A stretch of 51,799 nt of DNA from Antricoccus suffuscus. Lineage in GTDB: Bacteria > Actinomycetota > Actinomycetes > Mycobacteriales > Antricoccaceae. Below the pieces are notes generated by a model. That model worked only from the letters and a program-made list of their open reading frames with translations. It searched no databases and was not told the origin of the DNA. A program made the translations under genes and the position numbers. Below are positions 27,993 to 29,950 of the stretch, in pieces (the first letter of the stretch is position 1; every line of letters starts with the position of its first letter). The DNA lies in the NCBI RefSeq assembly GCF_003003235.1, contig NZ_PVUE01000025.1:1-51799 (forward strand). Direction: 5' to 3'.

Positions 27993-28631
27993 TCAATCGC
28001 GACCTGGTTGATACCGGTCAGCGTGGATCGCGTCATGTAAGGGTCGTTTCTGCCGCCAGCCCAGCCGTTCAAGATCGGGTTTTTCCTGGACTCGCGACAC
28101 CGGGCCGACGCACAGCCAGGCAACCGGCCGGACTGAGGTGGGTATTCCCAGCAGCTCCTGCAAGAAGCTCTCGCGATAGAAGGAGACCCATCCGATCCCG
28201 AGAGACTCGGCGGTTGCGGCCAGCCAGAGATTCTGGATGCATAGGCAGACCGAGTACAGGCCGGCATCGGCGATCGCGTGGCGCCCGAGGACGTGCGGCC
28301 CGCCGCGGTCGGCATCGTAGGTCACGACGATCCCGAGGGTCGACTCCATAATCCCCTCGACTTTGATGCGCGAGAACGTCTCTCGCCGAGAGGGATCGAG
28401 GCTTTGGTCGAACACTTCGCGTTCGGACTCGACGTGTTGCTGGAACTGTCTTCTCATCTGCCGATCCCTTACGAGGATGAAGTCCCACGGCTGGCTGTGC
28501 CCGACGCTGGGCGCCGCATGAGCGGCCGCAAGGACGCGCTCTAAGGCGTCGGGCTGAATCGGCTCACCGTTGAATTCGCTACGCACGTCGCGGCGCCGAT
28601 AGATGAGGTCGTAAAGATCGGATGATGGCAT
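27993..28631 (-). CDS. bluB: 5,6-dimethylbenzimidazole synthase
   Basis: 212 aa nitroreductase-fold flavoenzyme. BluB cleaves FMN with oxygen to make 5,6-dimethylbenzimidazole, the lower ligand of cobalamin. The N-terminal DLIYRRRDVRSEF, the segment AAPSVGHSQPWDFI and the C-terminal GIGWVSFYRESFLQELLGIP are BluB-like. The assignment is strengthened by the cobalamin riboswitch in its leader. GGGAG lies 4 nt before the ATG. It is not next to other B12 genes. Confidence 0.9.
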   Translation of the reverse strand: MPSSDLYDLIYRRRDVRSEFNGEPIQPDALERVLAAAHAAPSVGHSQPWDFILVRDRQMRRQFQQHVESEREVFDQSLDPSRRETFSRIKVEGIMESTLGIVVTYDADRGGPHVLGRHAIADAGLYSVCLCIQNLWLAATAESLGIGWVSFYRESFLQELLGIPTSVRPVAWLCVGPVSRVQEKPDLERLGWRQKRPLHDAIHADRYQPGRD

Positions 28632-28679
28632 GTGGCTCCCGACAGTTATCCGCGTGATCGCAGCGAAGCGATGCGCGCG

Positions 28680-28866
28680 GCGGTGGAGCGAGGCCGGTCT
28701 TCGGACTTCCCGTCAACGTCAGTCGATCGCCTTCCCAAGTCCGAATCGGACTCAGTGGCTGCGCAAGCGCGAGATCGATGACTCCGGGTCACCGCAGCGG
28801 GCCCTGTGCCGGAGTCTCACCGGCTTCCCGATTCTCTCCGTTAGGAGCACCTCGCAGGCTTTGCCG
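28680..28866 (-). promoter_or_regulatory. Cobalamin riboswitch controlling bluB
   Basis: Read on the minus strand, the leader contains GGGAAGCCGGTGAGACTCCG (about 28828-28809), then CAGGGCCCGC and GCGGTGA. The B12-box region GTCCGAAGACCGGCC follows at about 28706-28692. These are the conserved core elements of the cobalamin riboswitch in the right order. The bluB start is about 60 nt after the B12 box. A stem-loop (ATCGC/GCGAT with flanking CGCG) and then GGGAG-CCAC-ATG lie in between, which suggests translational control. A -10 element TAGAGT at 28878-28873, inside GGGTA-CTC-TACCC, puts the transcript start near 28866. Confidence 0.88.
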
Positions 28867-29071
28867 CTGGGTACTCTACCCGGAGACCGGTCAGCAAGCG
28901 CGCGACGAGTTCCTGGGGTCGGCCGGACGTACGCCGATCCCGAGTCGTCGCCAGGGCTGCTTTTGCCGACGATCAAGCCAGAAGAAGCGGTCGACAAGGG
29001 GTGCTTGCGGGGCGCTAGAGTCGGGTATGCACGGTCAAGGGGGATCGACGCAACTGACGAAAGGTACTCGC

Positions 29072-29950
29072 ATGCCGCTGTCTGACAAGCCACTCGAGAA
29101 GAAGTACGCCGACGTACTGGGACAACGGATGGCGTACGCCGAAGCCGGTACCGGCGACCCGATCGTGTTTCTGCATGGCAACCCGACCTCGTCGTACCTC
29201 TGGCGCAACGTCATCCCGCATCTGCAGTCACAGGGCCGGTGCATCGCGCCGGACCTGATCGGCATGGGCGACTCGGACAAGCTCCCGGACTCGGCGCCGG
29301 GCAGTTATCGTTTCGTCGACCATCGCCGTTACCTCGATGCCCTACTCGAGCAGCTCGGCGTGACCGAACGCGTCACTCTGGTCATCCACGACTGGGGCTC
29401 GGCGCTCGGGTTTGACTGGGCTAACCGTCATCGCGACGCGGTCAAGGGAATCGCCTATATGGAGGCGATCGTCCGCGAGGTCACCTGGGCAGACTGGCCA
29501 GAGGCCGCCCGCGGCATCTTCCAAGGATTCCGCTCCGACGCGGGCGAGAAGCTGATCATCGAGAAAAACATGTTCGTCGAGCGGGTGCTGCCTGCCTCGG
29601 TCCTGCGGACACTCACCGATGCCGAGATGGACGTCTACCGGGCGCCGTATGTGAATCCGGGCGAGGATCGCCGACCGACGCTGACGTGGCCGCGGGAAAT
29701 CCCGATCGAAGGCGAGCCATCCGACGTGTGCGCGATCGTGGGCGACTACAGCTCTTGGCTCGCGTCGAGCGAGGTACCCAAGCTCTTTGTGAACGCCGAC
29801 CCCGGGTCGATCCTGACCGGGCCGCAGCGGGAGTTCGCCCGCACCTGGCCCAACCAGCGCGAAGTCACCGTCGCCGGCAACCACTTCATCCAGGAAGACT
29901 CCCCAGATGAGATCGGGGCGGCGATCGCCGACTGGTACGCCGGCCTCTAG
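29072..29950 (+). CDS. Haloalkane dehalogenase, LinB-like (HLD-II)
   Basis: 292 aa alpha/beta-hydrolase that replaces a halogen with hydroxyl by a covalent aspartyl intermediate. The residues line up with LinB one position earlier: halide-binding N37 and W108, nucleophile D107 (VIHDWGS), acid E131 (IAYMEAI) and base H271 ([14 protein letters not shown]). No signal peptide. I chose ATG 29072 because it matches the LinB N-terminus and has AAAGG upstream. An in-frame ATG at 29027 lies about 6 nt after TAGAGT and could be a leaderless start adding 15 residues. Natural substrates are unknown. Confidence 0.93.

What the first reader, a model, noticed from the sequence alone, without database searches (positions are those of the whole stretch)
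28680..28866. Cobalamin riboswitch on an isolated bluB
The leader has the conserved core and B12 box, and the gene makes the cobalamin lower ligand. End-product control of a lone lower-ligand gene fits well, and the riboswitch independently supports the BluB assignment over a generic nitroreductase.
Basis: partly seen in the sequence, partly recalled or inferred. Interest (0 to 1): 0.5.

Follow-up and report, generated by a model that had tools for sequence, protein, structure and literature searches.

The report
Vitamin B12 riboswitch before bluB
A B12-sensing RNA switch sits directly in front of the gene that makes the lower ligand of vitamin B12 in an actinobacterium; this is a known kind of control, though the way this version may grip the ribosome-binding site looks conserved and has not been tested.

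Summary
Rfam's cobalamin riboswitch model matches the minus strand at window 28869-28675 over its full length (94.8 bits, cut-off 31.5, E 2.1e-22). The next gene, 28631-27993 (-), is BluB (TIGR02476, 214 bits, cut-off 150), the only copy over the cut-off in a genome that also encodes much of the aerobic B12 pathway, CobT and seven further riboswitches. No B12 gene was found beside it. Riboswitches on bluB are already described (Sinorhizobium, Mesorhizobium; PMC5948670), so this is a new member of a known kind.

New detail: 26 of 100 distinct BluB genes examined carry this leader. All 26 keep P1, a variable GC-rich hairpin and the Shine-Dalgarno block CGGGAGCC; the same leader also precedes putative cobaltochelatase (ChlD-like) genes. 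No terminator was found, so control is probably translational. The block can pair with aptamer loop L5 (repression) or with the 3' strand of P1 (activation if ligand closes P1). Repression is much the likelier, but the sign is not shown, and in the window itself neither pairing clearly beats chance.

The parts
28675..28869 (-). cobalamin riboswitch aptamer (RF00174, full length)
   Evidence: 94.8 bits, cut-off 31.5
28873..28878 (-). promoter -10-like TAGAGT, 7 nt before the conserved GGCA
   Evidence: TANNNT exactly 7 nt before GGCA in 22 of 26 bluB leaders; the generic sigma-70 scan found nothing
28862..28865 (-). GGCA, likely close to the start of the transcript
   Evidence: present in 25 of 26 leaders; transcript start inferred
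28849..28855 (-). P1 5' strand GCGAGGU
   Evidence: located in relatives by a pattern that fixes most letters, free at one pair: A-U 10, G-C 14, G-U 2, never A-C
28797..28803 (-). L5 loop strand GGCCCGC, candidate kissing partner of the Shine-Dalgarno block
   Evidence: L5 kissing cytidines as in PMC11260477 section 18
28753..28759 (-). conserved GCCACTG of the P6 extension
28692..28710 (-). B12 box (GGAAGUCCGAAGACCGGCC)
28688..28694 (-). P1 3' strand GCCUCGC; with the preceding G also complementary to the Shine-Dalgarno block (7 of 8 pairs here)
28650..28680 (-). GC-rich hairpin between P1 and the Shine-Dalgarno block; no T run follows
   Evidence: sequence varies, some hairpin predicted in each of 26 leaders; no terminator
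28634..28641 (-). CGGGAGCC: Shine-Dalgarno block
   Evidence: GGGAGCC in 26 of 26 riboswitch leaders; within 120 nt upstream of 1 of 74 bluB genes without the riboswitch
27993..28631 (-). bluB, 5,6-dimethylbenzimidazole synthase, 212 aa

Best explanation
It is a class-I-type cobalamin riboswitch in the leader of a stand-alone bluB. A promoter just upstream starts a transcript near GGCA. When adenosylcobalamin is plentiful it binds the aptamer, the fold (P1 closed, L5 presented) is locked, and the Shine-Dalgarno block CGGGAGCC is taken out of use, most simply by pairing with the cytidines of L5 (the kissing-loop partner, here lying on the Shine-Dalgarno block instead of in a separate hairpin loop). 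BluB is then not translated and no more lower ligand is made. Shown: aptamer, gene, conservation of the promoter-like and Shine-Dalgarno blocks, no terminator found. Inferred: ligand, sign, kissing partner, translational level.
For: Full-length RF00174 match. BluB, sole copy over the cut-off (1 of 9 matches), in a genome with much of the aerobic pathway including CobT. Seven other riboswitches of the genome precede metE, two NikA-like transporter genes, cobN, a CbtA gene and two BtuF-type binding proteins, an ordinary B12 regulon. The leader is before bluB in 26 of 100 distinct BluBs; 25 of the 26 pass Rfam's threshold, directly or through another locus with the same leader. GGGAGCC is in 26 of 26 such leaders and before 1 of 74 bluB genes without one. 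L5 is GGCCCGC in 26 of 26 and pairs with GCGGG of the block (CGGG in the window). No terminator. Corrinoid riboswitches are described as repressing, with one activating exception (PMC10653944 abstract, passages, sections 9 and 14); L5 cytidines pair with a GG in L13 in the repressing M. tuberculosis metE switch (PMC11260477, section 18 read).
Against: L5:block pairing is not better than chance in the window (18% of Shine-Dalgarno-like 12-mers do as well) and modest elsewhere (4.7-8.9% in the other 25). In 7 of 26 bluB leaders another site matches L5 longer. The alternative pairing, block with P1 3' strand, ranks better across the family (0.8-1.8% for 25 of 26; window 13%) and its naive logic is activation. 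No expression data.
Confidence: 0.75

Rival explanations
1. Activating switch. Without ligand the 3' strand of P1 (GGCCUCGC) pairs with the Shine-Dalgarno block and blocks translation; a corrinoid, perhaps one lacking the lower ligand, closes P1, frees the block and turns bluB on, so that the lower ligand is made when there is a ring waiting for it.
For: The block GCGGGAGCC can form 8 of 8 pairs (one bulged A) with the P1 3' strand in 25 of 26 leaders, 7 of 8 in the window. P1 and this stem exclude each other, and P1 is kept, with changes on both sides at one pair. The stem-forced fold is more stable than the P1-forced fold in 24 of 26. Complementarity is at the 0.8-1.8% level of Shine-Dalgarno-like 12-mers in 25 of 26. 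Precedent: A. halodurans cobT, a lower-ligand gene, is activated by cobinamide (PMC10653944 section 9).
Against: Leaders share ancestry, so 26 is nearer to one observation. The window's own block has lost one pair and its match is at the 13% level. The same leader also precedes 20 cobaltochelatase (ChlD-like) genes, where activation makes less sense. Secondary-structure energies ignore ligand and tertiary contacts.
Confidence: 0.15
2. A transcriptional riboswitch with an intrinsic or Rho-dependent terminator between aptamer and bluB.
For: A strong hairpin lies between P1 and the gene. M. tuberculosis metE shows added loss of RNA that the authors relate to Rho (PMC11260477, section 18).
Against: No T run follows the hairpin and no terminator-like site was found at 28500-29100; the Shine-Dalgarno block follows shortly after the hairpin across the family.
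Confidence: 0.07
3. The gene is a generic nitroreductase and the riboswitch is a relic without function.
For: Pfam calls the protein only Nitroreductase. One relative, L139, shows that such leaders can decay.
Against: BluB equivalog score 214 over 150; a BluB is the closest solved chain by about 40 orders of magnitude in E-value; the window aptamer is full length at 94.8 bits with P1 intact.
Confidence: 0.03

Closest known systems
bluB riboswitches of Sinorhizobium meliloti and Mesorhizobium loti (PMC5948670: passages seen, section 15 read)
   Same: cobalamin riboswitch before bluB
   Different: Alphaproteobacteria; the paper lists the leaders and puts them before GFP; in what I read it does not say which curve is bluB's and does not dissect the expression platform
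Mycobacterium tuberculosis metE B12 riboswitch (PMC11260477: passages seen, section 18 read)
   Same: actinobacterial, class I, large P6 extension, no intrinsic terminator, translational, L5 cytidines used for a kissing loop
   Different: there the kissing partner is the loop of a separate hairpin and the initiation region is covered by an alpha-TIR strand; here the L5 complement found in all 26 leaders is the Shine-Dalgarno block itself
Activating cobT riboswitch of Alkalihalobacillus halodurans (PMC10653944: abstract and passages seen, sections 9 and 14 read)
   Same: corrinoid riboswitch on a lower-ligand gene
   Different: transcriptional, works through P13 against a terminator; none was found here; sign here unknown
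Leaders of cobaltochelatase (ChlD-like) genes in families f41 and f31 of the sample (20 loci; f41 holds G147, whose bluB leader equals that of Nocardioides gilvus)
   Same: same B12 box, P1 3' strand and GCGGGAGCC block (fixed by the search pattern); L5 GGCCCGC in 17 of 20, GGUCCGC in 3; 13 of 13 scanned pass RF00174
   Different: short P6 region without the GCCACTG extension in the sequences printed

Membership tests
Cobalamin riboswitch (Rfam RF00174) | covariance score over the curated threshold | tested here: met
   94.8 bits, gathering 31.5
Cobalamin riboswitch (Rfam RF00174) | conserved core and B12 box in register | tested here: met
   full-length alignment 1-189; single pattern match, 0.01 expected
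Cobalamin riboswitch (Rfam RF00174) | lies before a B12-related gene on the same strand | tested here: met
   bluB begins 43 nt beyond the aptamer
Cobalamin riboswitch (Rfam RF00174) | L5-L13 kissing loop | tested here: inconclusive
   L5 complement on the Shine-Dalgarno block in 26 of 26, but energy match near chance in the window; hairpin loops differ between leaders
Cobalamin riboswitch (Rfam RF00174) | binds cobalamin and changes expression | not testable with these tools
   needs binding and reporter assays
Class I (AdoCbl-type) cobalamin riboswitch | large P6 extension | tested here: met
   P6 extension with the GCCACTG stem aligned
Class I (AdoCbl-type) cobalamin riboswitch | preference for adenosylcobalamin | not testable with these tools
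   binding assay needed
BluB (TIGR02476) | equivalog score over cut-off | tested here: met
   214.3 bits, cut-off 150
BluB (TIGR02476) | catalytic Asp and Ser of S. meliloti BluB (D32, S167; residues, numbering and the organism of 2isj recalled) | tested here: met
   both aligned and identical in the 2isj alignment (query D15, S150)
BluB (TIGR02476) | makes dimethylbenzimidazole | not testable with these tools
   enzyme assay needed
Activating corrinoid riboswitch (A. halodurans cobT type) | antiterminator against an intrinsic terminator | tested here: not met
   no terminator-like site at 28500-29100
Activating corrinoid riboswitch (A. halodurans cobT type) | expression raised by cobinamide | not testable with these tools
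   reporter assay needed

The most novel reading that the evidence does not exclude
The actinobacterial bluB leader is a translational activating corrinoid riboswitch: the 3' strand of P1 holds the Shine-Dalgarno block when no corrinoid is bound, and a corrinoid (possibly an unfinished one without lower ligand) closes P1 and turns on lower-ligand synthesis. It would be a second activating corrinoid riboswitch on a lower-ligand gene, with a different, translational mechanism.
Probability: 0.13. Interest if true: 0.65.

Novelty: new member of a known kind. Interest (0 to 1): 0.3.

Why it matters
It ties lower-ligand synthesis to corrinoid supply in actinobacteria whose bluB stands away from the cob genes, and it gives 26 naturally varied leaders with one conserved platform. 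Two mutually exclusive pairings of the Shine-Dalgarno block predict opposite signs, so a simple reporter test would settle whether this lower-ligand gene is repressed by finished cobalamin or called up by unfinished rings.

Tried and rejected
Intrinsic terminator: none found. Another RNA family on the bluB loci: in the 64 loci scanned at gathering thresholds the only match besides cobalamin/AdoCbl riboswitches was one group II intron in L044; no FMN riboswitch. Kissing loop through the hairpin between P1 and the gene: the hairpin loops vary and share no L5 complement that I could see. Fold energy as evidence: z -0.35, no help. A second BluB in the genome: 1 of 9 matches is over the cut-off.

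Screens and their limits. A core pattern missed the window itself, so the tally printed (1 of 100) was discarded; one search uses GCCACTG plus the B12-box motif 45-70 nt apart within 700 nt upstream, and 25 of its 26 leaders were confirmed by Rfam (L170, with a long insertion, was not). The 100 BluBs are the 69 places plus 36 of the 64 loci, less 5 duplicates; the other 28 loci, among them nearly all BluB-CobT fusions, were not put in, so 26 of 100 is not a frequency for all BluBs. That screen fixes GACCNG[CG]C, and P1's 5' strand was found by a pattern too; free evidence are the last letters of the P1 3' strand, the one variable P1 pair and the block. The pattern fixes P1 3' strand and block outright, so its 29 places (one is the window) were used only to see which genes follow. 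One of the 20 queries, which I had labelled cobK, is a GntR regulator; CobK was not searched for. Loci L087-L093 were fetched; ORFs were listed for L087 and L088, and none of the seven supports a claim.

Full report
Observation. RF00174 matches the minus strand of the window at 28869-28675 over all 189 model positions with 94.8 bits (cut-off 31.5, E 2.1e-22), and is the only Rfam match at gathering score in the window. GCCACTG plus the B12-box motif occurs once, against 0.01 expected. The folding energy of the leader is ordinary (z -0.35). The gene that follows, 28631-27993 (-), 212 aa, is BluB: TIGR02476 at 214.3 bits over a cut-off of 150, nearest solved chain BluB 2isj at E 2.8e-52 with the next best at 1.2e-12. 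In that alignment the positions that I recall as catalytic (D32, S167) are identical.

Genome setting. The genome (4.68 Mb in 43 contigs, 97.8% complete) holds 8 cobalamin riboswitches over threshold. Besides bluB they lie before metE, two NikA-like transporter genes, cobN, a CbtA gene and two BtuF-type binding proteins. MetE and CobN pass their NCBIfam cut-offs and CbtA its Pfam cut-off; the NikA-like and BtuF-type genes pass only general families, no NCBIfam equivalog. The CbtA ORF starts some 280 nt downstream, and one NikA-like gene was read only inside the fetched stretch. Contig C8 holds a cob cluster: cobQ, cbiD, cobH, cobIJ and a CobG just under its cut-off (221.5 of 234.8); cobL domains, cobO, cobBC, a uroporphyrinogen-III methyltransferase and cobT over their cut-offs, CobM (255.9 of 259.65), CobS and CobU under theirs (CobT); and a putative cobaltochelatase, ChlD-like, over its cut-off (TIGR02442, 780.9 of 779.45). 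BluB has one match over its cut-off (1 of 9). Of 20 queries from this genome, 19 B12-related, none matches the window at E 1e-8 (one query proved to be a GntR regulator), so bluB is isolated. Isolation itself is common: 40 of the 46 non-fused rows, window included, show no such gene within the flanks held (1.5-3 kb for the other loci, fewer where a contig ends), and only 6 of the 46 have the riboswitch.

How widespread. Four BluB-CobT fusion loci (Conexibacter and other Solirubrobacterales) have one nearby on the opposite strand. A wider sample, 394 genomes of the class, gave 69 BluB places in 68 genomes at E 1e-60. With 36 of the earlier 64 loci added and 5 duplicates dropped, 100 distinct BluBs were screened; 26 have the leader, 23 of them among the 69. 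Nearly all fusion BluBs were outside this set. Of the 26, 25 pass Rfam's threshold directly or through another locus with the same leader; L170, which has a long insertion, does not. A quick BluB tree needs 7 gains or losses of the leader, 23 on average if labels are shuffled. L139, sister to a leader-bearing gene, keeps the first half of the aptamer and the Shine-Dalgarno block but lacks the rest: a decayed leader.

Anatomy of the leader. Across the 26: TANNNT lies exactly 7 nt before GGCA in 22, GGCA is present in 25. P1 has 7 pairs, 182 of 182 standard with G-U allowed; most of its letters are fixed by how it was found, but at the free pair A goes with U (10) and G with C (14) or U (2), never A with C. 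A GC-rich hairpin of variable sequence follows, then GGGAGCC in 26 of 26, 44 to 64 nt after the start of the B12-box match. GGGAGCC is found upstream of only 1 of 74 bluB genes without the leader, the decayed one. In 25 of 26 the block reads GCGGGAGCC; the window alone reads UCGGGAGCC. No terminator is predicted in the window leader.

Same leader elsewhere. A search for the P1 3' strand plus block found 29 places in 28 of 394 genomes; the reversed control found none in the rows shown. Nine precede bluB, the window among them, and twenty a ChlD-like gene, recognised by 65-75% identity over some 310-330 residues to the cobaltochelatase gene that heads a run with cobO and cobB in the window's own genome. 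No other gene was found behind it. Thirteen of these twenty leaders were given to Rfam and all thirteen pass RF00174.

How it may switch. Two pairings of the block are available. First, with L5: GGCCCGC in 26 of 26 bluB leaders, five pairs with GCGGG, four in the window; the block is the longest or tied-longest complement of L5 downstream in 19 of 26 bluB and 20 of 20 ChlD-type leaders. L5 cytidines are the known kissing partners (PMC11260477 section 18; PMC10653944 passages), and pairing them with the block would repress. Second, with the P1 3' strand: 8 of 8 pairs with one bulged A in 25 of 26, 7 of 8 in the window. That pairing excludes P1, so a ligand that closes P1 would free the block and activate. 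Forced folds favour it over P1 in 24 of 26, but such energies leave out ligand and tertiary contacts. Against 1500 Shine-Dalgarno-like 12-mers the P1 3' pairing ranks in the best 0.8-1.8% in 25 of 26, but 13% in the window; the L5 pairing ranks 4.7-8.9% in 25, 18% in the window. Shared ancestry makes the 26 far fewer independent cases. So the window alone supports neither pairing beyond chance; the family supports both moderately, the P1 pairing better.

Verdict on sign. In the passages I read, corrinoid riboswitches are said to repress, with one activating exception reported in the same paper (PMC10653944), and the cobaltochelatase genes with the same leader fit feedback. I put repression at about 0.75. 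The exception is a lower-ligand gene, cobT, induced by cobinamide, which keeps activation at about 0.13-0.15 here.

Novelty. Riboswitches before bluB are in print (PMC5948670, section 15 read: S. meliloti and M. loti). Searches of the held library for bluB with cobalamin or B12 riboswitch, Actinobacteria, Streptomyces, and cobinamide with lower ligand (listings seen, 10 of 18 papers shown) showed no title on an actinobacterial bluB riboswitch; I did not read all listed papers, and two older papers that I looked up by recalled id are not held. I file it as a new member of a known kind.

Noticed in passing
L139 (G204:C4), upstream of bluB: Decayed riboswitch: the 5' half of the aptamer (P1 5' strand to P5) runs straight into GACACAGCGGGAGCCTGCC and the bluB start; the B12 box, P1 3' strand and hairpin are missing.
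   Followed up: partly
L101-L107, L109-L120, L122: Twenty leaders of ChlD-like cobaltochelatase genes share the B12 box, P1 3' strand and Shine-Dalgarno block with bluB leaders but have a much shorter P6 region.
   Followed up: partly
window 28862-28865 (-) and the equivalent place in 25 of 26 leaders: GGCA conserved just after the -10-like box; it might pair with UGCC or UGUC near the bluB start codon.
   Followed up: no
L040, L041, L042, L047: BluB-CobT fusion genes of Solirubrobacterales have a cobalamin or AdoCbl riboswitch upstream on the opposite strand; in L040, L041 and L047 a cobQ match lies on that side.
   Followed up: no
window 29072-29950 (+): Divergent neighbour is a haloalkane dehalogenase (NF002938, 449 bits); the mechanical ORF from 28778 runs antisense through part of the riboswitch and is most likely an over-long start.
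   Followed up: no
L016: A contig labelled Candidatus Melainabacteria carries a BluB 67% identical to the window's, inside the actinobacterial clade of the tree; probably a mis-binned contig.
   Followed up: no
G000:C16:12877-13331: Two cobalamin riboswitches back to back, one for metE and one for a NikA-like transporter, share one divergent intergenic region.
   Followed up: no
G000:C8 about 107583: The window's own cobaltochelatase-cobO-cobB run has no riboswitch over threshold, unlike the twenty ChlD-type genes of other genomes.
   Followed up: no
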